From the NCBI GenBank assembly GCA_008933805.1, contig WBUH01000013.1, positions 1 to 64,000 of the forward strand: DNA of 64,000 nt. The letters run 5' to 3'. The notes under the pieces are model-generated. The model was not told where the DNA came from. It saw nothing but the letters and a program-made list of their open reading frames with translations, and made no database searches. Within the stretch, counting starts at the first letter, position 1, and the number at the start of each line of letters is the position of its first letter. The position numbers and the translations under genes were made by a program. The stretch is from Bacteroidota bacterium (GTDB taxonomy: Bacteria; Bacteroidota; Bacteroidia; UBA8524). Shown one piece after another: positions 1,964 through 18,558 of this stretch.

Positions 1964-4405
1964 TTACTTTAAATACACTTTGCTTATTTGCATTCCTGCA
2001 CTACCTGCCACTTTCACAACGTAATATCCGGGCACTGTTTGCAACTCAGGTAACATTGCTGTTTGGCCTGCGTGAGCATCAATAACACCCTTATATACTG
2101 TTTTACCTAACAAGTCGATTACTTCTACAGCAAGAGTTTCGGTAGTTGTAGTACCTATACTAATGGTCGTCCCGTTTGAACCTATAAAGAAATCCGCAGC
2201 CGCTGATTCCTCAACCGCAGTTGTACTTTTCTTGCGGATGTGCAACACAAAACGTTCAGCAATATCACCGGTTTCAATATCAAACGTAAAGGCACCTTTT
2301 GCTATATCGTATAGTTTTCCGCTTAGTTTATCCTCAAGATAAACCTCAACACCCCTTTCTATATTTTCCAAAGCAGCTGTCAGTTGATGTTTTCCTGTAC
2401 TTGCTGTCGAAACAGCTATTGGTAGGTCAATACCCTTTTCAGGAATATCACTCCATACATCTCTGTTCAACCTTTTATCGTCAGAAACAATATAGATGCT
2501 TGGGGCAGAGGGGTCATTCATTTTCTTAAACCCATCCAATGCATCAAACCCATTTTGGGCTGCACTATCAGTAAAAAATTTTGCCTTATCGGTAACACCT
2601 GTTTTCAGGTTTTTAAGACTTAATTCAACGAAATTTTCTACTGAAACTGTTTTATCAAAAAAGTTTGACCCAATAGCCACATTTCTGCTGCTGTTAGGCA
2701 AGGTTACGCTTACATTGTTTGATGAAACTTTGATAGTAAAGGCGGTGAAAGGAGGCACTACACCATCGTTTATATTATCATAAGCAGTGTAGGTGCCTGT
2801 ATTTTGATCATAAAAATAAGCCGCCGTTCCTTGTATGTTTGCTATTGAACCATCCCAATAAAAGCCTGTAGGCCACGGATTGCGTATTATATGCCAACCT
2901 GATGTATCGTTGTTACTGCCTGTGCTTGTTAATCCTGATAATGTATAGTTTGAAGTACCTTGATAAGTACCTGTAATATCTATAGTAAGCGGCAAATTTG
3001 AGTTGCGCAGATAAACTGCAAAACCGCCAGCATCCATACTTTGAGATAAACCACTGGCTGCAGTCCAATGCGGTGCCGAACCTGACTCATCAAACCTGAA
3101 CACATTAGCATAATTTGGATCGGGTGTGCTAAAATACAACGGCACATCATCGTTTATTTGCGCCAATGTTGCGCCGCTCACAGGTGAGCAAATAGACCTC
3201 CAACCGGCACCACCGCCTCCTATGTAATACTCACAGGTGATGTTGCCTGATATAGCTCCGTTTAAGCTGCCACCGGCTCCTATCTGACCGTAACTGGTTG
3301 CCGAACTTGCTCCTAAAGTAAGTAAACTATTGGTGGTTAACGTTGTGCTGCTCGACACTCTAAGAATGCCTTCAAACTCAAACGCTGTGCCGTATAAGTT
3401 TGCTGTACCCGATTTGTAAAACTCAAGGTCGCCATTGCTGCTTCCTAAACCATTGCCGTAATTGTAAAAATCGCCGTATACTGAAACTAAGTTACCTGAG
3501 GTAACAGTTAAATTATAACCGCTATCCACCCTTAGGCTGCGACAAGTAAATGATCCGGGAGCGGTGTTAGATTGAATAATTACATCCATAGTTGATGAAA
3601 CCGTACCTCCCCACGAACTACCGTTCCAACTCAGTCTTAAAGGAATTGCAGTTGTTTGCGGAGTATTTCCTATTGTCCAGTTAGCTTTGTTATTTATCAC
3701 AGTTTTATCAAGACTAAGAATATTACTTGTCATGACTATATTCTCTCTTTTAACCAAACTCGAATCCATTCGGATTGCACTCACGCCACTCACCAAAGAG
3801 TCGGGCAATTCAGATTGAAACAACCCGGATGCAGAGGCGGTCCCGTCCCAATTAGCGTCAGAGGTTAATCCGGTAATGTAATTTAGATGAATGCCTGCCA
3901 AATATCTTGTAACCGTCAACCTGTATGTTGAAGAAGTATCGATGCTGGTAATACCCTGAAAAGCGAACACTTGATCAGTTCCACCGTTATGGTTTAAGGA
4001 TAGCGCAGTACCGGTTACAATGGTTCCGGTAGAGGCATTTGCCAAACCACCAGCATTTGAAGCTGCGGCAGTTGAACTCCAAAATTTTATTATTGTGCCT
4101 GCGGGCAACGCACTTGATGCTTCCCATATAAACACATACTCGTTTTTATTGCTGGTTAATATATTATACCCGTTTGCATCCTTATAGCATCCGTCAGTAA
4201 AGCCAATTTGTGTGCCTGATGTAATACCTTTAAGCAATACGATTGCAAAAGTATCAGCAGTGCTGTTATTCATCTGGCAGCTAACAAAGGCAACATCACC
4301 GGCATACAACGATGTTTGCGCTTTAACGCCGAAGGAAAAAAAGGTTAAAAATGTGGTTATTGCCCAAAATGACAATTTTTTTAACGAGTAGGTGTTGATA
4401 TTCAT
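1964..4405 (-). CDS. secreted protein with T9SS type A sorting domain
   Basis: This 813-residue protein has an N-terminal signal peptide (residues 1-29, ending VKAQ), so it is exported to the periplasm. Its C-terminal ~75 residues carry the T9SS type A pattern (VEVIDLLGKTVYKG, then GYYVVKV, ending KVYLK), which directs passage across the outer membrane and anchoring or release at the surface. The middle is rich in Ser, Thr, Gly and Asn and looks like beta-sandwich material; the first ~170 residues (LYAGDVAFVS, IGFTDGCYKD) resemble a domain common in Bacteroidota surface proteins, but I cannot name a function. It is monocistronic, with the terminator at its 3' end shared with era. The 150 bases upstream are very AT-rich. 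Confidence 0.85.
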   Translation of the reverse strand: MNINTYSLKKLSFWAITTFLTFFSFGVKAQTSLYAGDVAFVSCQMNNSTADTFAIVLLKGITSGTQIGFTDGCYKDANGYNILTSNKNEYVFIWEASSALPAGTIIKFWSSTAAASNAGGLANASTGTIVTGTALSLNHNGGTDQVFAFQGITSIDTSSTYRLTVTRYLAGIHLNYITGLTSDANWDGTASASGLFQSELPDSLVSGVSAIRMDSSLVKRENIVMTSNILSLDKTVINNKANWTIGNTPQTTAIPLRLSWNGSSWGGTVSSTMDVIIQSNTAPGSFTCRSLRVDSGYNLTVTSGNLVSVYGDFYNYGNGLGSSNGDLEFYKSGTANLYGTAFEFEGILRVSSSTTLTTNSLLTLGASSATSYGQIGAGGSLNGAISGNITCEYYIGGGGAGWRSICSPVSGATLAQINDDVPLYFSTPDPNYANVFRFDESGSAPHWTAASGLSQSMDAGGFAVYLRNSNLPLTIDITGTYQGTSNYTLSGLTSTGSNNDTSGWHIIRNPWPTGFYWDGSIANIQGTAAYFYDQNTGTYTAYDNINDGVVPPFTAFTIKVSSNNVSVTLPNSSRNVAIGSNFFDKTVSVENFVELSLKNLKTGVTDKAKFFTDSAAQNGFDALDGFKKMNDPSAPSIYIVSDDKRLNRDVWSDIPEKGIDLPIAVSTASTGKHQLTAALENIERGVEVYLEDKLSGKLYDIAKGAFTFDIETGDIAERFVLHIRKKSTTAVEESAAADFFIGSNGTTISIGTTTTETLAVEVIDLLGKTVYKGVIDAHAGQTAMLPELQTVPGYYVVKVAGSAGMQISKVYLK

Positions 4406-4569
4406 TTTTAGCGATAATTAAAAATTTAAAATTACTGCTTATAAATTTTTAATCACTTTTTCACTTCTAACACACCATGTTAACAACACAAATACTGATT
4501 ACTATATAGTACAATATAACTCATACTAAAAATATTTTTTAAAATAATTTACTAAAAAATAATAAATTT

Positions 4570-4977
4570 TTATACTGCAGCAGCCTCACGCAGACGCTCA
4601 TAGTTGCGCTTCACCTCACCTGATATAGGCACTGCATTGCCCTCATCATCAATACGTACAAAAGTAATATGAGTAGTACATACCACAACTTCCTCGCCAC
4701 CGTAAAAATTACGTTTCCGCGCCTCAATTTTCATGGTTACAGAAGTATTACCAATTGACAATACATCGCCATAAATCAATATTTGATATCCAAGTTTTAC
4801 AGGACGTTTAAACACTACTTCATCGATTTTGACGGTAACCATATTTGGGGTATTACATACATCGGCAGCCATTGATGCTGCGGCTTCGTCTATCCACGAC
4901 AGCATATTCCCTCCGAATAAATTACCGTGAATACCGAGGTCACGGGTCATACAGATTTTTTGCGTTATCAGTTTCAT
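4570..4977 (-). CDS. hotdog-fold acyl-CoA thioesterase (YciA/ACOT type)
   Basis: A 135-residue single hotdog domain. The N-terminal stretch GIHGNLFGGNMLSWIDEAAA is the active-site loop and long helix of the acyl-CoA thioesterase family: G-N-x-F-G-G followed by the D of WIDEAA. The later VFKRPVKLG and FVRID strands complete the fold. The family hydrolyses acyl-CoA thioesters in the cytoplasm; the chain-length preference cannot be read from sequence. The gene stands alone. The downstream side is AT-rich without a clear terminator. Confidence 0.85.
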   Translation of the reverse strand: MKLITQKICMTRDLGIHGNLFGGNMLSWIDEAAASMAADVCNTPNMVTVKIDEVVFKRPVKLGYQILIYGDVLSIGNTSVTMKIEARKRNFYGGEEVVVCTTHITFVRIDDEGNAVPISGEVKRNYERLREAAAV

Positions 4978-5293
4978 TTTTGTACTAATTTTAAATGTGA
5001 TTGTTGGAAAAATGACCCTTAGCGAGATGCAACAATGCCCATAGCAGGCATATTTGCTGTGCTTATCGTTTTTTTGAGGGCCGGCTGAAAAAGTGAGTTA
5101 TCAGCAACAATGCGCACAATGCCAACAGCACACTGCACGATGGGCCGCATGGCGTTTTCGTGAGTTTAGATGATATGTATTGCTGTTGTTAAGCATTTAT
5201 AAATGCGTTGCTTTTTCTTATAAAAGAGCTGCAAAGCTAAGCACAAGTTTTTATATAATGAAAGAACCGGCAATTAAATTCTGTTAACACAAC
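4978..5293. other. intergenic region without recognisable gene
   Basis: Both strands are broken by stops and I see no RNA fold or repeat I can support. The stretch at about 5070-5190 is richer in GC than its surroundings and could be decayed coding sequence, but nothing identifies it. Confidence 0.4.
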
Positions 5294-5321
5294 AAAAAAG
5301 GGAGTGTTTTGCGACACCCCC
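5294..5321 (-). terminator. Rho-independent terminator of the AidA/PixA-family gene
   Basis: On the minus strand an 8-bp stem (GGGGGTGT with ACACTCCC, one G:T pair) encloses a 6-base loop and is followed by six T residues. It lies about 30 bases after the stop codon of the gene ending at 5353. Confidence 0.88.
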
Positions 5322-5352
5322 TTCGTCGTTAAAATTATGGAACGGAAACAAC

Positions 5353-5883
5353 TTATAACTCAATTGTAATGAATGGATCCCATTGGAAATAACCAATTAC
5401 TGTACCTTGTTGGTTTAGCACTTGGAACGACCATGAGTATTGTACACTATTGCAAGCTTGCAAAGCAGTAGTTTGCCATGCTGAACTGGTGTAGGCAATA
5501 GGTGTAGCAGTGGTTGGATTTGTAGGGTTATTGATATACAAGTTTACGGCAAGCGGGAGACAAATGGGTTGTGTTACATAAGTACCGATTGCCGCAGATT
5601 GGAAATTGTACAAAATAGAACTAAACTCAACACCGGCACCGGGGTTGGTAATTGTCCAACGGATGTTATCACCCACATCGCACTGGATGGTAAGTTCTGA
5701 TTGGGCTTGCTCGTTTACAACATAGCAATCTTCAGTAATCATAAACACATACACATCTGATTGTGAATATGAGCCCAATGAGGTAGGAGCATTTAATGAG
5801 CCGGCAGGCAATTGGCCATTGGCAACTTTGGCAGCTAACGTGGCTGCATCAACAACGCATAGAATATCGATAGTATTAGACAT
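5353..5883 (-). CDS. AidA/PixA family (inclusion-body-type) protein
   Basis: This 176-residue protein has no signal peptide. The opening SNTIDILCVVDAATL, the central YVFMITEDCYVV and CDVGDNIRWTI blocks, and the ending GYFQWDPFITIEL follow the family of PixA (inclusion-body protein of Xenorhabdus) and AidA (quorum-sensing-controlled protein of Ralstonia/Burkholderia). The members are small soluble beta-rich proteins, sometimes made in very large amounts; their biochemical role is unknown. The gene is alone with its own strong terminator, consistent with high, separately controlled expression (inference). It lies immediately before the accessory island. Confidence 0.75.
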   Translation of the reverse strand: MSNTIDILCVVDAATLAAKVANGQLPAGSLNAPTSLGSYSQSDVYVFMITEDCYVVNEQAQSELTIQCDVGDNIRWTITNPGAGVEFSSILYNFQSAAIGTYVTQPICLPLAVNLYINNPTNPTTATPIAYTSSAWQTTALQACNSVQYSWSFQVLNQQGTVIGYFQWDPFITIEL

Positions 5884-6361
5884 AACTTTAAATTTTTGAT
5901 AGTTAGTTCTTACTCGTAAGGCTTTTCAGAATCCGCCCCAACAGTTACTTGGTTGGTCAAGCCCGTGTTTTTTAGAAATGGTACGGCAACATTTAATTGA
6001 ATTACGTGCACATAAACAGGGGGTCAGCCTTTTTCAAACCCAACTTGTATTTATTATAATCAAATGCAAGTTGGAGTAAATACATCCGTTAAAAAACAGT
6101 AGTTGTTACTGTATTGATAAACAGATACTTTTACGGGTAAGCCCTACTAACAAATAAGTGTTACGATGTTATGCAGTTACGCAGTTATCGTGTTATTTTT
6201 GTTACGCACCGCACAAGGGCTTGCGGGGTTTTGTCTGTATAGCAGACGGTTACGGGTTTCAAAGAACTTTTAGATACGTAGTAATTGGAAACGGACATAA
6301 ATGAAGAAGTCCCGATTTCTCGGGACTTCCATAACTTTTTTATACGAAGGTGATAATTGAA
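5884..6361. other. left flank of the accessory island, no gene seen
   Basis: It holds an imperfect inverted repeat at 6040-6074 (arms CCAACTTG and CAAGTTGG around an AT-rich loop) of unknown role. At 6311-6360 there is a solo copy of the block that follows the island hairpins elsewhere (hairpin CCCGA-TTTC-TCGGG, then ACTTCCATAAC and a GTGATAATTG end). A 74-residue minus-strand frame across 6185-6409 is translated repeat and I do not call it a gene. Confidence 0.5.
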
Positions 6362-6446
6362 ATACAGCCCATCTGTGTGTGAAATTTGTAGGCACAACTC
6401 ATAATGCAATTTACTTTTTCTAAGTTACAAACTAGCGTATTTGCCC
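6362..6446. repeat. island repeat B, left copy
   Basis: An ~85-base block (ATACAGCCCATCTGT ... TGTGAAATTTGTAGG ... CTAAGTTACAAACTAG ... GTATTTGCCC) that recurs with small changes at 9971-10059 in the same orientation. It is directly followed by hairpin R1. Confidence 0.8.
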
Positions 6447-6451
6447 CGCGC

Positions 6452-6600
6452 TCTCGCAAGTCTGTCGCGCAGGCTGTGCGGCAGCGACTTGTGAGAATAT
6501 GTAAAATAAGTTTGTAACTTATTCATTCTTTTAAAGTAAAACAATATGCTCCCGATTTCTCGGGACTTCCATAACCTTTTTATACAAAGGTGATAATTGG
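6452..6600. repeat. island hairpin repeat R1 with its ~100-base tail
   Basis: The outer stem TCTCGCAAGT / ACTTGTGAGA (one G:T pair) and the inner stem CTGTCGC / GCGGCAG surround a 9-base loop GCAGGCTGT (6452-6496). The tail holds a second small hairpin CCCGATTTCTCGGG and the block ACTTCCATAACC ... ATACAAAGGTGATAATTGG. The whole 149-base block matches R3 (8274-8423) almost base for base. Confidence 0.88.
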
Positions 6601-6754
6601 GACAATACCGTTCGCTGGTAACCGCCTGTATGTAAAACGCTTTTAGCTGTTCGGCTGCATCCCATAGGTACTTTCGGTCAGTATCGCTTTGGGTAATGCT
6701 GCTGTTTACATTAAAATTAAAATACTGTAGTAAGTGCGGTAAGGTTATACCGTC
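6601..6754 (-). pseudogene. possible remnant of a gene end
   Basis: On the minus strand the frame directly after the stop of the 6755-7273 gene stays open into hairpin R1 and encodes protein-like, less AT-rich sequence (for example QSDTDRKYLWDAAEQLKAFY). There is no start codon and no recognisable family. It may be the 3' end of a gene that was cut off when the cassette to its right arrived, or chance. Confidence 0.3.
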
Positions 6755-7273
6755 TTAAACAAACCAATATTTTATTATCCACCAATGGCGTCTTTTATAC
6801 TTTAACTCATATGATTCCCATTCTTTTGGAAGTTTACTATTTTGCTTAAAACTCTTATAAACAAGATTTGGGTCATAAAGCGTAATAATACTATTTCCCG
6901 ATAACATTTTTAGATTCAAAATAAAATCAGAGTAAGACTTTGTCCGAAAGAGCCTTTTAGTACTTATATCAAAAATACACCACCCAGTATATTTAACTAT
7001 AATACCGTTCGTTTCTGAACAATGAAGTAAAATATAATTTTGAACAAGGCCTATAGAATCAATTCCATTTATATCAGACAAGAGATTATTTGTATATTTT
7101 TCTTGTATAAACCAATTATCATCATTCTTAAGAGAATTTAGAACAATTGGCTCAATTAATGGTATTTGTTTCAAATCACCATCAGAAGAATACTCATAAA
7201 AACCCTTAAAAAATAGGGTGTATAAAATAAAACCAATTGAACATATAATAATTAAAGTCTTAAGTATTTTCAT
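6755..7273 (-). CDS. small membrane-anchored protein of unknown function (island gene 1)
   Basis: A 172-residue protein with one N-terminal hydrophobic helix (residues about 4-22, TLIIICSIGFILYTLFF), so probably anchored in the inner membrane with the rest in the periplasm. I recognise no family. The coding sequence is strongly AT-rich and full of Lys, Asn and Ile, unlike the core genes. It occupies the unit between hairpins R1 (downstream) and R2 (upstream). An immunity role against a secreted toxin is possible from context only. Confidence 0.6.
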   Translation of the reverse strand: MKILKTLIIICSIGFILYTLFFKGFYEYSSDGDLKQIPLIEPIVLNSLKNDDNWFIQEKYTNNLLSDINGIDSIGLVQNYILLHCSETNGIIVKYTGWCIFDISTKRLFRTKSYSDFILNLKMLSGNSIITLYDPNLVYKSFKQNSKLPKEWESYELKYKRRHWWIIKYWFV

Positions 7274-7396
7274 TTTAAACTTATTTTACATATACGGAAT
7301 ATGAGGCATCAAATTCAACACGCGTTTACATATTAGAATTTCCTCTAAACTGTGAATAATAAACCGTTCCCGTGACAGCACAACAAATATTACAGC

Positions 7397-7490
7397 CCCC
7401 CGCTCTCGCAAGTCTGTCGCGCAGGCTGTGTGGCAGCGAATTGTGAGAGCGGGGGACTTCCATAACCTTTTATACAAAGGTGATAATTTG
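7397..7490. repeat. island hairpin repeat R2
   Basis: The outer stem is extended to 15 bp here (CCCCCGCTCTCGCAA with TTGTGAGAGCGGGGG, one G:T pair; 7397-7455) around the same inner stem and loop as R1. The short tail goes straight to ACTTCCATAACCTTTTATACAA and GGTGATAATTTGG, leaving out the middle part of the R1/R3 tail. It lies just 3' of the first copy of the duplicated lipoprotein gene. Confidence 0.88.
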
Positions 7491-7502
7491 GAATATAGCT
7501 TA

Positions 7503-8237
7503 TCAACCTGCACCTTTTTGACATATCTCCATAATATTTATTACATGATTACCATAATGAGGCCAAATTTGTTTGAACAGAGTAGAATCCGTATCATATC
7601 TCCTTCTTTGAAGTCCTCTTAAAACTCTACCATTTTCCGTTTCTTGTAAAGAACAACACTCCGCTGCATAACCTATCAAAATGGATATAATATCAAAGTA
7701 GTTATCCTGAATATAACTTATCTCCAACCTCCTAAAAGTGCTATCATAAGTTCTCGCATCCCTTACAAATTTATTACCATAATAAATCCAATCAGATTCA
7801 CAATTCTTATTAATATACTCCTTTACCTCCAACAGAGCTTTACAATTCTTGTGTTGTTTAAAAGCCTCCCTAATGTCACTTTTAGAATATACATTAGAAA
7901 AAAACTCATACAGTCCAGCATCCAGGTTAACTGAGTCTCTCGGTTTTCTTAAGCCAAAAATCTTAAAATATTTATAGTTACTTTTATCAAAATCTTCGTA
8001 AATGTTTATTGCAATGAGATCTCTCAATACGAAAAACGATGTTATATTTTCGCTTCTCAGATAATCTAAATAAATAAATGTCTTTAGCGTATCCCCATTT
8101 TCTTCGAACCGATAACTTTCACTATACCTGCTGATTGTTTTTGATATTTCTTCGATTTCTGCATTTGACTTCCAGTTACATCCGATGAAAATAATCAGAA
8201 AAATAATTAACACTTGCTTTCTTAAATAAACCATCAT
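7503..8237 (-). CDS. lipoprotein of unknown function, copy 1 of an identical pair
   Basis: A 244-residue protein starting with a lipoprotein signal (LRKQVLIIFLIIFIGC, lipobox cysteine at about residue 20), so it is expected to be lipid-anchored. The rest is acidic and helical (EIEEISKTISRYSES; DIREAFKQHKNCKALLEVKEY), with no recognised family. Two ATG codons are adjacent (8237 and 8234); either may be used. The whole coding sequence is identical to 9147-9881. Identity over 803 bases (7466-8268 with 9110-9912) points to a very recent copy or to gene conversion. Being a lipoprotein in a hairpin-bounded unit, it is a candidate immunity lipoprotein (inference). Confidence 0.75.
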   Translation of the reverse strand: MMVYLRKQVLIIFLIIFIGCNWKSNAEIEEISKTISRYSESYRFEENGDTLKTFIYLDYLRSENITSFFVLRDLIAINIYEDFDKSNYKYFKIFGLRKPRDSVNLDAGLYEFFSNVYSKSDIREAFKQHKNCKALLEVKEYINKNCESDWIYYGNKFVRDARTYDSTFRRLEISYIQDNYFDIISILIGYAAECCSLQETENGRVLRGLQRRRYDTDSTLFKQIWPHYGNHVINIMEICQKGAG

Positions 8238-8273
8238 CGCTTTTTTATTAAACTAAATAATACTCCCCATACC

Positions 8274-8423
8274 TCTCGCAAGTCTGTCGAGCAGGCTGTG
8301 CGGCAGCGACTTGTGAGAATATGTAAAATAAGTTTGCAACTTATTCATTCTTTTAAAGTAAAACAATATGCTCCCGATTTCTCGGGACTTCCATAACTTT
8401 TTTATACAAAGGTGACAATTTGG
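8274..8423. repeat. island hairpin repeat R3 with its ~100-base tail
   Basis: Same structure as R1: outer stem TCTCGCAAGT / ACTTGTGAGA (8274-8318), tail with AATAAGTTTGCAACTTATTC and hairpin CCCGATTTCTCGGG, ending GGTGACAATTTGG. It lies 5' of lipoprotein copy 1 and 3' of the 8440-8958 gene. Confidence 0.88.
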
Positions 8424-8439
8424 AACACGACCCTACCCT

Positions 8440-8958
8440 CTATTCAATTTCTAAACTATATTCAATGTTCAACTTTCGAAGAATATATAAAATCAAAAGA
8501 ACATTATTTGCGGAGGCAAATTTTTCAATTTTATTTATTTCACAAATTCCATTTAAGTAATTTACTTTAACATCTATTTCCCATCGAAAGTATGGTGCCC
8601 AAGATGACTCTGAAACATCGGATATTCTACGAAAAAGAAAAACTATTGAATCATAACCCTCAGCACTAATTCTTGTTTTTATAATTTTCTCATGGGTATT
8701 TATTACAAAAACAATATCTCTAAAGTGCCAGATTAGCTCTTTGACAAAATACCACAAAAAATACATTAATATAAGGACACATAAAACAGAAATAAATAAA
8801 TTTATTCTATATATAACAACCAAATACAATGAAAATGCAATAAAAATCAAACTACCGGCTAACAAAATCATTGAAATAAGAAATTTATGCTTTCTTTTGG
8901 TAAACGTCATTAACGTCTCCTGGAATTGAATTTTTGTATCAGGCATTTTTACTTCCAT
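8440..8958 (-). CDS. small two-helix membrane protein of unknown function (island gene 3)
   Basis: A 172-residue protein with two adjacent transmembrane helices at about residues 28-48 (FLISMILLAGSLIFIAFSLY) and 52-75 (INLFISVLCVLILMYFLWYF), followed by a ~95-residue cytoplasmic-looking domain. No family recognised. M1 and M5 are both possible starts. It is AT-rich like the rest of the island and sits alone between hairpins R3 and R4. A membrane immunity protein is a reasonable guess from context, no more. Confidence 0.6.
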   Translation of the reverse strand: MEVKMPDTKIQFQETLMTFTKRKHKFLISMILLAGSLIFIAFSLYLVVIYRINLFISVLCVLILMYFLWYFVKELIWHFRDIVFVINTHEKIIKTRISAEGYDSIVFLFRRISDVSESSWAPYFRWEIDVKVNYLNGICEINKIEKFASANNVLLILYILRKLNIEYSLEIE

Positions 8959-9041
8959 ATCAATCCGTTTTAAGTTTTTCTTTTACCTGGTTTTATTTAG
9001 ATCTGTATGGAAGTTATCTAACGCTTTTATTACTGAACCTC

Positions 9042-9136
9042 CCCCCGCTCTCGCAAGTCTGTCTCGTAGGCTGTTTGGCAGCGAATTGTGATAGCGGGGG
9101 ACTTCCATACCTTTTATACAAAGGTGATAATTTGGA
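9042..9136. repeat. island hairpin repeat R4
   Basis: Counterpart of R2, 3' of lipoprotein copy 2. It has the same 15-bp outer arms and tail, but with about five differences from R2 in ~70 bases, some of which weaken the stem (TAGC instead of GAGC in the right arm; CTC instead of CGC inside). Confidence 0.86.
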
Positions 9137-9146
9137 ATATAGCTTA

Positions 9147-9881
9147 TCAACCTGCACCTTTTTGACATATCTCCATAATATTTATTACATGATTACCATA
9201 ATGAGGCCAAATTTGTTTGAACAGAGTAGAATCCGTATCATATCTCCTTCTTTGAAGTCCTCTTAAAACTCTACCATTTTCCGTTTCTTGTAAAGAACAA
9301 CACTCCGCTGCATAACCTATCAAAATGGATATAATATCAAAGTAGTTATCCTGAATATAACTTATCTCCAACCTCCTAAAAGTGCTATCATAAGTTCTCG
9401 CATCCCTTACAAATTTATTACCATAATAAATCCAATCAGATTCACAATTCTTATTAATATACTCCTTTACCTCCAACAGAGCTTTACAATTCTTGTGTTG
9501 TTTAAAAGCCTCCCTAATGTCACTTTTAGAATATACATTAGAAAAAAACTCATACAGTCCAGCATCCAGGTTAACTGAGTCTCTCGGTTTTCTTAAGCCA
9601 AAAATCTTAAAATATTTATAGTTACTTTTATCAAAATCTTCGTAAATGTTTATTGCAATGAGATCTCTCAATACGAAAAACGATGTTATATTTTCGCTTC
9701 TCAGATAATCTAAATAAATAAATGTCTTTAGCGTATCCCCATTTTCTTCGAACCGATAACTTTCACTATACCTGCTGATTGTTTTTGATATTTCTTCGAT
9801 TTCTGCATTTGACTTCCAGTTACATCCGATGAAAATAATCAGAAAAATAATTAACACTTGCTTTCTTAAATAAACCATCAT
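9147..9881 (-). CDS. lipoprotein of unknown function, copy 2 of an identical pair
   Basis: Identical in DNA to 7503-8237: 244 residues, lipoprotein signal with lipobox FIGC, no recognised domain. The two copies lie 1644 bases apart in the same orientation with one other gene between them. Because the copies are indistinguishable, any assembly error or collapse could be hidden here. If both are expressed they only double the dose. The bordering hairpins R4 and R5 are diverged from R2 and R3, so the copies are not one simple perfect tandem duplication. Confidence 0.75.
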   Translation of the reverse strand: MMVYLRKQVLIIFLIIFIGCNWKSNAEIEEISKTISRYSESYRFEENGDTLKTFIYLDYLRSENITSFFVLRDLIAINIYEDFDKSNYKYFKIFGLRKPRDSVNLDAGLYEFFSNVYSKSDIREAFKQHKNCKALLEVKEYINKNCESDWIYYGNKFVRDARTYDSTFRRLEISYIQDNYFDIISILIGYAAECCSLQETENGRVLRGLQRRRYDTDSTLFKQIWPHYGNHVINIMEICQKGAG

Positions 9882-9917
9882 CGCTTTTTTATTAAACTAA
9901 ATAATACTCCCCGTACC

Positions 9918-9962
9918 TCTCGCAAGTCTGTCGCGCAGGCTGTGCAGCAGCGACTTGAGGGA
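9918..9962. repeat. island hairpin repeat R5
   Basis: Outer arms TCTCGCAAGT and ACTTGAGGGA, inner CTGTCGC / GCAGCAG. The right arm is degraded compared with R1 and R3, and the usual tail is replaced by repeat B. It lies 5' of lipoprotein copy 2. Confidence 0.8.
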
Positions 9963-9970
9963 ATACATCT

Positions 9971-10059
9971 ATACAGCCCATCTGTATTGTGAAATTTGTA
10001 GGTACGGATCATATAATGCAAATCACTTTTTCTAAGTTACAAACTTAGTGTATTTGCCC
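9971..10059. repeat. island repeat B, right copy
   Basis: Same orientation as 6362-6446 with scattered substitutions. What follows (10060-10120) is only a weak, rearranged likeness of the hairpin (GTCTCTGTCGCAGTAGAC ... CGGCTTGCGAGG). The two B copies bracket hairpins R1-R5 and the four genes between them. Confidence 0.78.
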
Positions 10060-10184
10060 TATGAGTCTCTGTCGCAGTAGACTGAGCTACCGGCTTGCGA
10101 GGGCGAAAGAAATTATCCAGCGATACCACCTCTGAAAGAGATGGGAAATATCTTTTTATTGTTGACATTACTTAATTAAATTTT

Positions 10185-10556
10185 TTACTTAACCTTAGTA
10201 CCATAAAGAGGGGGCTTTTGCAGGAACTCTTTCCATAATAGTAAAACACTCTTAAACTCTTGAAGAGTATAACTTTCGTAGGGGCCACTACTATAATCTT
10301 TATCATCCCATATTTTACACCCGTAGGGTCTATCTCACAACTTACAAAATCTATTGAAAGCAGGGGGCTTACAAGGGGGGATATTATTTATGCTTTCATC
10401 AACCAAAATAATTAGCTCATCTACATCCTCAATTAAAGGAAGCATGCTCAAGAGTGTGGTAATTCGCCTTTCGCCGTCAGCATATTTTATAATAGTATTA
10501 TTGGGGTTAATAGTACTTTTAAATTTGATACCAAGTTGTACTATAATATTACTCAT
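10185..10556 (-). pseudogene. immunity-like protein gene interrupted by an in-frame TGA
   Basis: The frame from ATG 10556 (MSNIIVQLG) reads 73 residues to a TGA at 10337-10335, then continues in the same frame for 49 more codons to TAA at 10185. The part after the TGA (YTLQEFKSVLLLWKEFLQKPPL) is the same C-terminal motif as in the neighbour at 10592-10945 (INDYKRILEEWINFLKTPPL). One nonsense change in an otherwise open gene of normal length (~123 codons) is the simplest reading. Third gene of a row of three paralogues on the minus strand. Whether the 73-residue product has any function is unknown. Confidence 0.75.
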
Positions 10557-10591
10557 GTTTTTAATCATGAAGATTCTATAAAAAATTATTG

Positions 10592-10945
10592 TTACATTTT
10601 TTGGAAATTCAACGGGGGTGTTTTCAAAAAATTAATCCACTCCTCCAAAATTCTCTTGTAATCATTGATAGGAATTGTATATACATCATTAATCGTTACG
10701 TTTGTTGTAGTAATTTCAACTGATGTGTCATTAAAACTAATCTCCCTTTGATATGCTTGATTCGTTAAGGCTCTATCGATTTCTTTAAGTACTTGCATGA
10801 AATGTCCCTCATCAAATGATCCACTAAGATGATAAGCTATGTCAGCAGCGAGGGTTGCGTCAGGAGCGAAGCATTGCTTATAATTTTTACCATTTGTAAT
10901 AACATTACTAAAAGCTAAATTGTATTGTTTGATAATTGTGTTCAT
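10592..10945 (-). CDS. immunity-like small protein, paralogue 2
   Basis: A soluble 117-residue protein with no signal. Its C-terminal motif, a short strand then D-Y-K-x-I-L-x-x-W-x-x-F-L-x-x-P-P-L, is shared with the two neighbouring genes. This kind of ending is frequent in small immunity proteins kept next to contact-dependent toxins in Bacteroidota, but I cannot name the family, and no toxin is in the window. Its ATG overlaps the stop of the upstream gene (ATGA, 10942-10945), so translation is probably coupled. The gap to the broken third paralogue is about 35 bases. Confidence 0.65.
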   Translation of the reverse strand: MNTIIKQYNLAFSNVITNGKNYKQCFAPDATLAADIAYHLSGSFDEGHFMQVLKEIDRALTNQAYQREISFNDTSVEITTTNVTINDVYTIPINDYKRILEEWINFLKTPPLNFQKM

Positions 10946-11313
10946 ATTTTATTTATAAACGACATCCACTCTAAAACAATTTTTTCGAAATCATCCGTAG
11001 GTAATTGTTCATCTGGAAAAGACCAAGAACCCCCTTTATCTGTATATACAAATTTTGTATTATTGATGTCAATGTAGGCTATAATACCAGTGTCGGATGA
11101 TATTTGAATATATATCTTCGCAATAGTTATTGTATTAGTTTTAACTGAATCAATTTGATTAATAATAAATTCTTGAATGTCATCTCCGAGTATATAATCA
11201 CTCAAAAACTGACACAAAGTGGGTTTTAATTTGCTTTCACAAAAACTAAAATTTATGCCGCTGACAATTTTTTTATAAAAATTAACTTGATACTGTTTTA
11301 ATATATTACTCAT
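10942..11313 (-). CDS. immunity-like small protein, paralogue 1
   Basis: A soluble 123-residue protein (MSNILKQYQVNFYKKIVSG ...) ending in PTDDFEKIVLEWMSFINKI, the same C-terminal motif as the next two genes. The frame can be extended to 11463, but that extension is translated hairpin R7, and alignment with the paralogues (MSNII, MNTII) puts the start at ATG 11313. First gene of the three-gene run; overlaps the next by 4 bases (ATGA). Function is inferred from context only: a candidate cytoplasmic immunity protein. Confidence 0.65.
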   Translation of the reverse strand: MSNILKQYQVNFYKKIVSGINFSFCESKLKPTLCQFLSDYILGDDIQEFIINQIDSVKTNTITIAKIYIQISSDTGIIAYIDINNTKFVYTDKGGSWSFPDEQLPTDDFEKIVLEWMSFINKI

Positions 11314-11410
11314 AAATTTCCTATTGATTAAAGTTTGGAAGCAATGGATATGACATAATGTCTTCAACACCATTAACATATAGTATTTTAAATATGCAAA
11401 ATGCCCCCGC

Positions 11411-11502
11411 TCTCGCAAGTCTGTCGCGCAGGCTGTGCGGCAGCGACTTGGGAGAATCAACACAATAAGTTACAAACTTATTCTTTCCGTGTAAAGTAAA
11501 AT
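11411..11502. repeat. island hairpin repeat R7
   Basis: Arms TCTCGCAAGT / ACTTGGGAGA with the standard inner stem and loop (11411-11455), preceded by CCCCCGC as in R2 and R4. The tail (AATAAGTTACAAACTTATTC ... GTAAAGTAAAAT) is related to that of R1/R3 and marks the right edge of the island. Confidence 0.83.
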
Positions 11503-11580: not shown

Positions 11581-11591
11581 GTCTTTGTTTG

Positions 11592-11664
11592 TGGTACCAG
11601 CCGGGATCGAACCAGCGACACAAGGATTTTCAGTCCTTTGCTCTACCAACTGAGCTATGGTACC
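11592..11664 (-). tRNA. tRNA-Phe, anticodon GAA
   Basis: 73-base cloverleaf on the minus strand: acceptor GGTACCA / TGGTACC, D stem with AGCTCAGTTGGTAGAGC, anticodon loop CTGAAAA, T loop TTCGATC; CCA not encoded. Its 3' end points to the hairpin island. Confidence 0.97.
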
Positions 11665-15270: not shown

Positions 15271-16476
15271 CTATTCAATCACCAATTTTTTGCTATATAC
15301 CTCGTTGGTGCCAATCACTTGTATTGTGCAATAGTAAACGGCAGCAGGCAACTGTATCGCCATTTCATTAACAACACCTGTTTCAAAAGCTACCTTTTTA
15401 CCCAACACATCATATACAGACACATTAAGTATATGTCCCAAGGGATTACTAAAACCCAGCGCATTTGAAGTTACGGGATTGGGGAAAATGTCAACCGTTG
15501 GGTTTGCCACAGCAGTTACACCAGTATTATTGTTACTTTTTAACAAAATCTCACCACTTAGTGTTCCAATCAGTGTCTTACCATTACGTGCCGACAATGA
15601 AAATGCCGACAAACCGGAAGGGAAAGAAGTATCTGCATTCCATGTCAAACCCCTGTTAGTAGTAATTAATGGCTTTGTGAATGTTAACCCTACCACATAT
15701 CCGATATTAACTGTAGGAAAGCTGATAGCTGTCGCCAAGGCTCCGCTGGGACCTGCCACCACCGGATACCAGTTACTACCACTATCAATAGTTTTCAAAA
15801 TTTCGGAGCCGTCGTATGTTAGCGCAAACCCAACTGATGCACTCGTAAACAATATATCTGCTATTGTATTTCCATTGCTAAGTGCCGACATATTTACCGG
15901 CTGCCAGTTTTGGCCTCCGTCAACTGTTTTCCTAATCTCTGTAGCTCCTGAAAACCCAACTGAATCATTAATAAAAAACAACGCTGTTGATGCCGCCAAA
16001 GAAGGGGTTGAAACAGCATTCCATGTTTGTCCGCCATCATTTGTAGCTGCAAACGAATTTCCCGAGCCAACTCCCCCTGTAGCATACCCAATATTTGCCG
16101 AAGTAAAAAACACGTTTGATACACCCTGGCTCATCGCAGATGATGAAACATCAGTCCAGTTTTGGCCGCCATCCGTTGTTTTTAATAAGTTAGGATTGCC
16201 TGTAATATCCGTACGACCGATAAACCCTGTATTAGCATCCAAAAAATGTACAACCTCAAAATTAGGGTCAGTAACCGATATATTCGGTGTCATATCCGTC
16301 CATGTATTTCCCCCATTGGTACTTTTCAAAAAAGTACTGTCGCCAACAGCATAAACAACTAAATCGTTTACAAACTGAATATCGTAAATAGCTTGGTTGC
16401 CTGTGTAAACAACGTTCCACTGACCAAAAGACATGATAGTGAGCAAAAGCCCGCAAAGCAGTAATGTGTATTTCAT
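15271..16476 (-). CDS. secreted YCF48/BNR-repeat protein with T9SS type A sorting domain
   Basis: 401 residues. A signal peptide (1-18, ending SFGQ) is followed by about six repeats carrying TDGGQNWT-like BNR signatures (TNGGNTWTDM, TDGGQNWTDV, NDGGQTWNAV, VDGGQNWQPV, IDSGSNWYPV, TNRGLTWNAD). This is the beta-propeller pattern of YCF48/HCF136-type and sialidase-like proteins. The last ~75 residues are a T9SS type A tail (VDIFPNPVTSNALGF, VYDVLGKKVAF, ending KKLVIE). It is exported by T9SS and displayed or released; the ligand is unknown. It is divergent from the 16598 gene and convergent with the lipoprotein before it. Confidence 0.88.
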   Translation of the reverse strand: MKYTLLLCGLLLTIMSFGQWNVVYTGNQAIYDIQFVNDLVVYAVGDSTFLKSTNGGNTWTDMTPNISVTDPNFEVVHFLDANTGFIGRTDITGNPNLLKTTDGGQNWTDVSSSAMSQGVSNVFFTSANIGYATGGVGSGNSFAATNDGGQTWNAVSTPSLAASTALFFINDSVGFSGATEIRKTVDGGQNWQPVNMSALSNGNTIADILFTSASVGFALTYDGSEILKTIDSGSNWYPVVAGPSGALATAISFPTVNIGYVVGLTFTKPLITTNRGLTWNADTSFPSGLSAFSLSARNGKTLIGTLSGEILLKSNNNTGVTAVANPTVDIFPNPVTSNALGFSNPLGHILNVSVYDVLGKKVAFETGVVNEMAIQLPAAVYYCTIQVIGTNEVYSKKLVIE

Positions 16477-16582
16477 AGTTCAAAAAAAATGTACCATAGC
16501 AGACCGCTCAATATCACGTAGTGTTGCAGCTTGTTGTAAAAAGACACTAATATGACACACTAAATACTACCAACAGCTTTAG

Positions 16583-16590
16583 TACCTTTG
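16583..16590 (+). promoter_or_regulatory. -7 element upstream of the 16598 gene
   Basis: TACCTTTG matches TAnnTTTG exactly; no clear TTG lies 19-20 bases upstream. Transcription would begin almost at the ATG at 16598, giving a mRNA with nearly no leader. Confidence 0.45.
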
Positions 16591-16597
16591 TATCATT

Positions 16598-17083
16598 ATG
16601 CATCATTTTCCTCCGCAATCAAAAGTTTGGGTATATATGGCCGACAGGCTTTTTACTGATGCCGAAACCCAAGCCCTTACAAACGCTATAGCCGATTTTA
16701 CAGCCCAGTGGACGGCCCACAACATGCAACTGAAAGCTACCGGACAAGTATATTTTAACCGTTTTATTGTACTACTGGTTGATGAAACCCAAGCAGGTGC
16801 CAGCGGCTGCTCAATTGATAAGTCGGTTCATTTTATAAAGCAGATTGAAGAAAAACTAGGCGTATCATTATTTAACAGGCAATTGATAGCTTACAAAAAA
16901 GGAGAAGACATTAATACCTTTTTATTGGGCGAAGTTGATAAATACGTGGCAAACGGCGAACTGACACCCGAAACGGTGTTTTTTAACAACACAGTAACCA
17001 CCAAACAACAGTTTGATGAGCAATGGCAGCAACCCATTGCCCAAAGTTGGATGAAACGCTACCTACCCACCCAAACCACATAA
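16598..17083 (+). CDS. conserved Bacteroidota protein (often labelled ABC transporter ATPase)
   Basis: 161 residues, soluble. The segments FPPQSKVWVYMADRLFTDAE, QWTAHNMQLKATGQVYFNRF, VDETQAGASGCSIDKSVHFI and IKQIEEKLGVSLFNR belong to a family widespread in Bacteroidota and often annotated as ABC transporter ATPase. I see no Walker A, Walker B or signature motif, so that name is not supported by sequence. In related genomes it tends to lie near the HdrD/HdrB-like Fe-S pair, as it does here (from memory, not checked). The function is unknown. Confidence 0.8.
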   Translation: MHHFPPQSKVWVYMADRLFTDAETQALTNAIADFTAQWTAHNMQLKATGQVYFNRFIVLLVDETQAGASGCSIDKSVHFIKQIEEKLGVSLFNRQLIAYKKGEDINTFLLGEVDKYVANGELTPETVFFNNTVTTKQQFDEQWQQPIAQSWMKRYLPTQTT

Positions 17084-18558
17084 CCCTGAAACGCACCGGA
17101 TTTTATATACTACTGGTTGCCCTGCACCTTGCATTATTTTGGCAGGTGAAAGACTTCCCATTTTTGGGAGACAGTATTCCCAGCAACCTGTTTGCCGCTG
17201 AGAATATTTACAATCACCATTTCGGGACAGTGTGGAACATTCCCGAGGCCGACCCCGGTCACGGCACATTATACCCCGCATTCATTGCCTTAATGTGGCT
17301 TATCTTCGGTAAAAGCTTATGGGTAACCCATTTAGTACAAATTGTGGTAGGATTGGCTACTTGCCTTATCGGCTATAAAATAGCCCGCAAAAACTGGGGT
17401 GAGAGTACCTCGCAGTTTGCAGTATTGTTGTTTAGCATATCACCGTTATACGTTGGGCAATTGATAGGCGCATCGTTACAGTTACCGCTCACGCTGGCTG
17501 CCCTTTCTGCCTTTTACTTTTGGCAGCAAAAAAAACACCTTGCATACGCCATAAGCCTTTGCCTAATGATGCTTTGCCATTTACAGGCTGCATTTTTGCT
17601 GTTATTCTTATTCATTCACGATGCCGCATTTTTCTACATCGAAAACGGCTATAAGCTTTACCTGCGTTGGTTTTTTATGCGCTGGTGGATATACGCGCTA
17701 CCCTTTGCTGTATTTTTAATTTGGGGCATACTGCACCAACAACACAGCGGCTGGGCATTTAGTTCTCCCAACTACTTGCGCGAAGCCCCCTCGTTTAAAG
17801 GGTTAGTGTACAACATAGGCATTATGGGCTGGAGAGTTATTGATTTTGGCTACCTGATACCTTTTGCCGTTGTAATTGCTTTCATCATCAAGCGGCGCAA
17901 AAAAATATACTTGGGTGATGCCAAAGTCCAAGCCCTTATCTCTTATGTGTTAATGTTGCTAATTGTAGGTGGCGGCATTTGTATTGTATTTGCCCACCCG
18001 CCTATACACCGCTACTTTTTGCCAACAACCTTACTGCTACTAATACTATTTGCAGCCATTTTAGAAGAGATGAAGCCCTTATCGGCCAAAATTTGGGCAA
18101 CCGTAGCGGCAATTGCTTTAGTGGCAGGCAACTTTATGTATTACCCCGGCAAGTGCATGGGCGATGCAAACCTTGCCTATTTACCTCTATTTAAATTAGA
18201 AGAAAAAATCGCGGCTGATTTCCCAAAAAATACTGTCTTTTATACCTACGCTCCATTAAGTTATCCTAGCTCCATCCGTTATATGGACAGCGCCAAAGGC
18301 CCTGTATTTAAAGGCCTGTATAATAAACCATTGGATAGTGCAACCTATGTTTTGCAAAGCTGTATGAATTGTGAATTTAGTGCCCGAGAAAAAGAAATAC
18401 TTAAAACATGGCACGGAACATCGTACACAGCAGGAAATGTATTTGTAAACATTTATGCAAACCCCGCTAAAGTGCCACAAAAACCAAAAGGCTGGCAATT
18501 ACGCCAACCTTCAGCTGCTGAGATTTGGTTGCAGGATGCTAAAGAAAATTTACAGTAA
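17023..18558 (+). CDS. polytopic membrane protein, probable GT-C-type glycosyltransferase
   Basis: 511 residues with about 10-12 transmembrane helices and an early periplasmic loop rich in acidic residues and aromatics (KDFPFLGDSIPSN, WNIPEADPGHGTLYPAF). This is the layout of ArnT/PMT-type glycosyltransferases that use polyprenyl-phosphate sugars; the DP/GHG motif of the first loop is suggestive but no family is certain. The ATG at 17023 overlaps the preceding gene by 61 bases in another frame. No other ATG precedes the first helix, so either this start or a rare codon just after 17083 is used. Confidence 0.7.
   Translation: MAATHCPKLDETLPTHPNHITLKRTGFYILLVALHLALFWQVKDFPFLGDSIPSNLFAAENIYNHHFGTVWNIPEADPGHGTLYPAFIALMWLIFGKSLWVTHLVQIVVGLATCLIGYKIARKNWGESTSQFAVLLFSISPLYVGQLIGASLQLPLTLAALSAFYFWQQKKHLAYAISLCLMMLCHLQAAFLLLFLFIHDAAFFYIENGYKLYLRWFFMRWWIYALPFAVFLIWGILHQQHSGWAFSSPNYLREAPSFKGLVYNIGIMGWRVIDFGYLIPFAVVIAFIIKRRKKIYLGDAKVQALISYVLMLLIVGGGICIVFAHPPIHRYFLPTTLLLLILFAAILEEMKPLSAKIWATVAAIALVAGNFMYYPGKCMGDANLAYLPLFKLEEKIAADFPKNTVFYTYAPLSYPSSIRYMDSAKGPVFKGLYNKPLDSATYVLQSCMNCEFSAREKEILKTWHGTSYTAGNVFVNIYANPAKVPQKPKGWQLRQPSAAEIWLQDAKENLQ

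What the first reader, a model, noticed from the sequence alone, without database searches (positions are those of the whole stretch)
7397..9962. Identical gene copies with diverged bordering hairpins
803 bases (7466-8268 and 9110-9912), holding a complete lipoprotein gene, show no difference, but the hairpins on each side differ at about five positions (R2 against R4) and several more (R3 against R5) within 45-70 bases. A simple tandem duplication would put equal divergence in both parts. This pattern is expected if the exchange point lies in or at the hairpins, or if hairpins mutate or are edited much faster.
Basis: seen in the sequence. Interest (0 to 1): 0.66.

Follow-up and report, generated by a model that had tools for sequence, protein, structure and literature searches.

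The report
Copied gene inside a repeat-bounded immunity-like array
A small gene appears twice, letter for letter, in a row of foreign-looking genes that probably protect the cell against neighbours' toxins; the hairpin repeats between the genes come from a degraded mobile element, and they look older than the gene copy, which probably spread by recombination in or beside them.

Summary
In detail: 7465-8268 and 9109-9912 are identical (804 bp), while the adjoining repeat sequence has 10 differences in about 125 bp (Fisher 1.4e-9). 'Fast-mutating hairpins' is not needed. Repeats of this family at unrelated loci differ from each other just as much (93-97% identity; R2/R4 95%), so the hairpin divergence is ordinary and the gene block is the young part.

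The hairpins belong to a family confined to seven clusters in this Bacteroidota genome. Each cluster is a row of small, mostly co-oriented, low-GC, mostly orphan genes. Several repeats carry the first ~27 codons of a REP-associated tyrosine transposase (RAYT), so they are decayed RAYT elements. No full-length gene of that type was found. One cluster lies directly downstream of an Rhs toxin tip and its putative immunity gene, so I read the rows as orphan-immunity arrays, like rAID but without the recombinase. Duplication plus homologous recombination (or gene conversion) ending in the repeats explains the pattern. RAYT-driven cassette movement is possible but unsupported. Function, reads and sister strains could not be tested.

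The parts
7465..8268 (-). identical block, copy 1 (ORF 7503-8237, 244-aa lipoprotein-like protein, plus conserved 3' tail)
9109..9912 (-). identical block, copy 2 (ORF 9147-9881)
6362..6610 (-). repeat R1: tail, terminator-like CCCGAGAAATCGGG, core hairpin, plus a decayed RAYT promoter/start remnant (about 6362-6446)
7395..7502 (-). repeat R2: short form; core hairpin followed directly by the tail
8266..8439 (-). repeat R3: A-type full spacer (tail, terminator-like hairpin, AT-rich middle stretch, core hairpin)
9040..9146 (-). repeat R4: short form, sister of R2 with 4 substitutions and 1 deletion
9913..10105 (-). repeat R5: gene-side half like R3, far half of RAYT-remnant type; codons MIRTYKFHNTDGLY at about 9971-10012
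11404..11501 (-). repeat R6: array-start repeat, directly downstream of the tRNA-Phe gene (11591-11664)
6755..7273 (-). small orphan ORF (172 aa), array unit
8440..8958 (-). small orphan ORF (172 aa), array unit between the two copies
10335..10568 (-). 77-aa ORF, diverged relative of the 117-aa family
10592..10945 (-). 117-aa ORF; 46% identical to an ORF in the array on C7 (L002 7154-7507)
10942..11313 (-). third relative of the 117-aa family

Best explanation
The window holds one of seven clusters in this genome made of small, AT-rich genes separated by a private repeat family. I read the clusters as orphan immunity-gene arrays, in which genes that neutralise toxins of rival bacteria are kept after the toxin gene is lost (inferred). 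The repeats are decayed, internally deleted derivatives of a RAYT-type transposable element (shown by its N-terminal codons in several copies), joined to a conserved tail after most genes (shown). Gene A was recently copied from one repeat-bounded slot into another, or homogenised between two older slots, by homologous recombination or gene conversion whose ends fell in the repeats. The gene block is therefore identical, while the repeats keep their older, family-typical divergence and are half-swapped (R3/R5). The steps of recombination are inferred.
For: 0/804 against 10/125 differences. R2/R4 identity of 95.3% equals that of repeats at unrelated loci (93-97%). R3/R5 share the gene-side half only. 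All 40-odd repeat hits with E < 0.01 fall in seven clusters. Array GC is 0.26-0.33 against 0.43 for the rest of the window. Most genes tested have no Pfam, NCBIfam or PADLOC family, and gene A is absent from 394 other genomes of the class. RAYT proteins from other Bacteroidia match inside the repeats from residue 1, best E 2e-12, supported. The cluster at C7:47-49.6k follows an Rhs-core ORF (TIGR03696, E 3.5e-6) and a 176-aa downstream gene, with the same tail and repeat after it. Several units begin with short ORF ends that look like toxin remnants.
Against: No single exchange point accounts for all differences; at least 5 in ~115 bp remain, so an extra step is needed. Only one of the seven clusters touches an Rhs gene, and the genome has only two Rhs-core hits. 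No array protein reaches a known immunity family; the nearest is PoNi_C at E = 0.05. One ORF in the C6 cluster lies in the opposite orientation. The structure models are too poor to use. No sister strain carries the repeat.
Confidence: 0.58

Rival explanations
1. Cassette system: each gene with its hairpin is excised and reinserted as a unit by a site-specific enzyme (integron- or rAID-like tyrosine recombinase, or RAYT acting on hairpins in direct orientation as in IS200/IS605 elements). Copy 2 is a reinsertion with the exchange inside the hairpin.
For: Direct, same-orientation imperfect palindromes flank genes in seven clusters and occur nowhere else. R5 is half R3 and half another subtype, as reinsertion would give. 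Repeats contain RAYT start codons.
Against: No integron integrase above cut-off. No tyrosine recombinase gene beside the window array. No full-length cognate RAYT in the assembly. No duplicated tRNA or tmRNA ends around the arrays. One exchange point leaves R2/R4 differences on the gene side. Unequal crossing-over followed by a deletion gives the same mosaic.
Confidence: 0.15
2. Recent simple tandem duplication; the hairpins then gathered changes at a much higher rate (replication slippage or DNA damage in hairpins).
For: R3, R4 and R5 each carry private changes, most of them breaking stem pairs. R2 and R4 share private features showing common descent.
Against: Other hairpins of the family in the same genome are nearly identical across unrelated loci. 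The far half of R5 is another subtype, not a mutated R3.
Confidence: 0.12
3. Artefact: consensus errors in hairpins or an assembly mistake at an 804-bp exact repeat.
For: Three of the four R2/R4 substitutions are G to T in one copy. Hairpins are error-prone for some sequencing chemistries (general knowledge). Reads are not available.
Against: The R3/R5 difference is a change of subtype over more than 100 bp, not point errors. Gene B (8440-8958) lies between the copies and the flanks outside are unique. Seven clusters show the same repeat architecture.
Confidence: 0.12

Closest known systems
[quoted passage not shown]
   Same: Arrays of co-oriented short low-GC genes with conserved intergenic motifs in Bacteroidota.
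   Different: No tyrosine recombinase at the array. The intergenic motif here is a RAYT-element derivative. Seven dispersed clusters rather than one recombinase-headed array. Immunity function untested.
Orphan immunity-gene arrays formed by effector displacement (Vibrio cholerae T6SS, PMC5361080) and Rhs orphan modules
   Same: Immunity-like genes, some preceded by apparent toxin 3' ends, downstream of an Rhs toxin/immunity pair at C7:47-49.6k.
   Different: Units are bounded by a shared repeat, and most clusters are far from any Rhs gene.
REP/BIME/REPIN repeats and RAYT (TnpA-REP) elements, notably the Bacteroidetes subclass 2.6 with atypical hairpins (PMC6006769)
   Same: Imperfect palindromes, some as inverted pairs around a RAYT start; several copies per genome.
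   Different: No full-length cognate RAYT found; repeats confined to gene arrays instead of scattered between ordinary genes.
Chromosomal integron cassette arrays (attC sites)
   Same: One small gene per imperfect palindrome, mostly the same orientation, little known function.
   Different: No IntI; the spacer carries RAYT codons and terminator-like and promoter-like stretches.

Membership tests
rAID | predicted tyrosine recombinase at the array | tested here: not met
   PF00589 hits in the genome: none next to the window array; only the C7:47k cluster has two recombinase genes about 5 kb away
[quoted passage not shown]
   a few genes are shorter than 100 codons and one C6 ORF is reversed
rAID | genes below 41% GC | tested here: met
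   0.26-0.33 in the window array, 0.32-0.33 over the other clusters measured
rAID | conserved intergenic motif | tested here: met
rAID | genes are orphan immunity genes | tested here: inconclusive
   no family match above cut-off; Rhs tip and downstream gene next to one cluster
Integron | IntI-type integrase | tested here: not met
   TIGR02249 best 75.9 bits against a cut-off of 265
Integron | attC sites with conserved R boxes | not tested
   palindromes present, but no attC model was run; no GTTRRRY/RYYYAAC pair noticed by eye
RAYT/REP element | RAYT (Y1) coding sequence associated with the palindromes | tested here: met
   N-terminal codons in A4, D1, D2, B0, G0 and R5, best E 2e-12; fragments only
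RAYT/REP element | full-length cognate RAYT in the genome | tested here: not met
   only three Y1_Tnp genes, lacking this N-terminus and with other flanking repeats
RAYT/REP element | GTAG/GGAG-type tetranucleotide at the hairpin foot | not tested
   subclass 2.6 REPs are described as atypical

The most novel reading that the evidence does not exclude
A RAYT-type single-strand transposase (encoded elsewhere or since lost) moves whole immunity genes as cassettes between its hairpins, which would make a RAYT-driven counterpart of integrons for toxin-immunity genes.
Probability: 0.1. Interest if true: 0.8.

Novelty: new variant of a known kind. Interest (0 to 1): 0.45.

Why it matters
If right, it shows a further way in which bacteria build and reshuffle libraries of immunity-type genes: remnants of a mobile element serve as shared borders between unrelated small genes, letting recombination copy or swap genes without a dedicated integrase. 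It also gives a clear rule for reading such arrays: compare the age of the borders with the age of the genes.

Tried and rejected
Integron: no IntI. tRNA/tmRNA integration island: two arrays start just after tRNA-Phe and tmRNA, but no repeated RNA-gene ends exist. Known defence genes: no PADLOC match for the array genes tested. Homologues of the hairpin: none in 394 other class genomes by pattern with up to 3 mismatches, nor by exact pattern in GTDB contigs or viral contigs; no plasmid match. General RAYT-Rhs partnership: 1 of 40 RAYT loci has an Rhs core within about 5 kb against 0 of 20 control regions, so it is not general; an earlier +/-1.5 kb test was too short to see it. The class-wide RAYT search used a query joined from the repeat-encoded N-terminus and a Bernardetia RAYT. 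Structure prediction of two array proteins was too poor (mean pLDDT 48 and 39), so no fold search was run. The simple 'hairpins mutate faster' reading was rejected because repeats elsewhere are equally diverged.

Full report
What is there. Window 7465-8268 and 9109-9912 are identical over 804 bp and contain a complete 244-aa lipoprotein-like ORF on the minus strand. The bordering repeats R2/R4 and R3/R5 are homologous but differ at 10 positions in about 125 bp, against none in 804 (Fisher 1.4e-9). Two of these differences (7464, 8269) lie just outside the palindromes, so the contrast is between gene block and whole repeat element.

The repeat family. A 169-bp consensus finds about 40 significant copies in the genome, all in seven clusters: window 6.3-11.5 kb; C7 at 18.5-23.2, 46.9-48 and 99-102.3 kb; C6 at 19.0-24.8 kb; C2 at 78.4-80.7 and 309.5-311.2 kb. 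In gene direction, a full spacer reads: stop codon, conserved tail (GGTCGTGTTCCAAATTATCACCTTTGTATAAAAAAGTTATGGAAGT), a terminator-like hairpin (CCCGAGAAATCGGG), an AT-rich stretch that in several copies contains TAAGTTTG (like the Bacteroidota -7 element TAnnTTTG; my reading, not tested), the core hairpin, then the next gene. Each spacer thus joins the end of one unit to the start of the next. The clusters are rows of small genes, nearly all on one strand, at 0.26-0.33 GC against 0.43 for the rest of the window. The pattern was not found in 394 other genomes of the class, and an exact version was absent from GTDB and viral contigs. Only five genomes represent the order.

Origin of the hairpins. 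Several spacers (A4, D1, D2, B0, G0 and window R5) contain an ATG followed by up to 27 codons of a REP-associated tyrosine transposase. Full-length RAYTs from nine other Bacteroidia match these from residue 1 (best E 2e-12), and a Bernardetia plasmid transposase matches a consensus of them at 60% identity. In one copy (D1) the start is enclosed by an inverted pair of hairpin arms (79% over 52 bp). The repeats are therefore internally deleted, decayed RAYT elements. No full-length RAYT with this N-terminus is in the assembly; the three Y1 transposase genes found are of another type with other flanking repeats. Subclass 2.6 RAYTs of Bacteroidetes are described with atypical hairpins (PMC6006769). 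Unlike ordinary REP sequences, this family occurs only inside the gene rows, so it probably spread together with the genes.

What the genes are. At C7:47-49.6k the row starts right after an ORF with an Rhs core (TIGR03696, E 3.5e-6) and a 176-aa gene in the place of its immunity gene; the same tail and repeat follow. Several other units start with short ORF ends that look like C-terminal toxin remnants; this is suggestive only. The genes tested mostly lack any family. This fits orphan immunity genes as in rAID (definition in PMC12247911) or arrays made by effector displacement (PMC5361080), but no function was tested. It is not rAID as defined, because no recombinase sits at the array, and not an integron, because no IntI was found.

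Why the gene is identical and the hairpins are not. R2 and R4 are 95.3% identical over 107 bp. Repeats next to unrelated genes elsewhere are 93-97% identical over about 160 bp. So the R2/R4 divergence is normal for the family, and what needs explaining is a young gene block between older borders. R3 and R5 agree on the gene side (94% over 84 bp), but beyond the hairpin R3 is of the A1/A2/A3/R1 subtype and R5 of the RAYT-remnant subtype. A break therefore lies at the hairpin's outer edge. Cassette reinsertion and unequal crossing-over followed by a deletion give the same mosaic. Either leaves at least five differences unexplained by any single exchange point (my count; 5/115 against 0/804, p = 3e-5). 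A gene-conversion tract between two older copies explains everything in one step: zero inside, family-typical divergence outside. I therefore favour homologous recombination or conversion ending in the repeats, with cassette movement, hypermutation and artefact as less likely rivals.

Side tests. Two arrays begin directly after RNA genes (tRNA-Phe; tmRNA), and their start repeats are 76% identical over 152 bp, but no RNA-gene ends are duplicated. RAYT genes sit right after Rhs toxin regions in two Bernardetia plasmids, yet in the class only 1 of 40 RAYT loci has an Rhs core within about 5 kb, against 0 of 20 control regions. The partnership is therefore not general.

Limits. No reads, no sister strain, no expression data. 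The assembly has 40 contigs at 97.7% completeness, so a cognate RAYT could be missing. 8,000 bases of L004 are withheld. The function of the genes and the mechanism of copying are inferred.

Noticed in passing
L096 (NZ_CP147014.1) 16376-18555 and L094 (NZ_CP147021.1) 4000-6498: In two Bernardetia plasmids a RAYT gene lies directly downstream of an Rhs-type toxin gene and a small gene; in the first it is enclosed by 90-bp inverted repeats.
   Followed up: partly
L025 10215-14352 (C7:52-56k): Two adjacent tyrosine recombinase genes (304 and 308 aa) after a 745-aa gene, about 5 kb from a repeat cluster; possible mobile unit.
   Followed up: no
L026 5224-9989 (C7:75-80k): Full-length Rhs gene (open frame of 3149 codons) ending in an HELGHNLGLNH metalloprotease-like motif, followed by a small lipoprotein gene, with a tyrosine recombinase gene close by.
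   Followed up: no
window 10335-11313: Three neighbouring diverged relatives of a 117-aa protein without hairpins between them; another relative lies in the array after tmRNA (L002 7154-7507).
   Followed up: partly
L060, L061, L062: Three other Y1 transposase genes in the genome, each with its own family of short palindromes.
   Followed up: no
L059 6270-9245 (C2:78.4-80.7k): A more diverged cluster of the repeat with extra tandem-like repeats (CCTCCCCCAACCCCTCC motif) between hairpins.
   Followed up: no
window 5353-5883: PixA-type inclusion body protein gene (Pfam E 5.5e-27) just beyond the array end, at normal GC.
   Followed up: no
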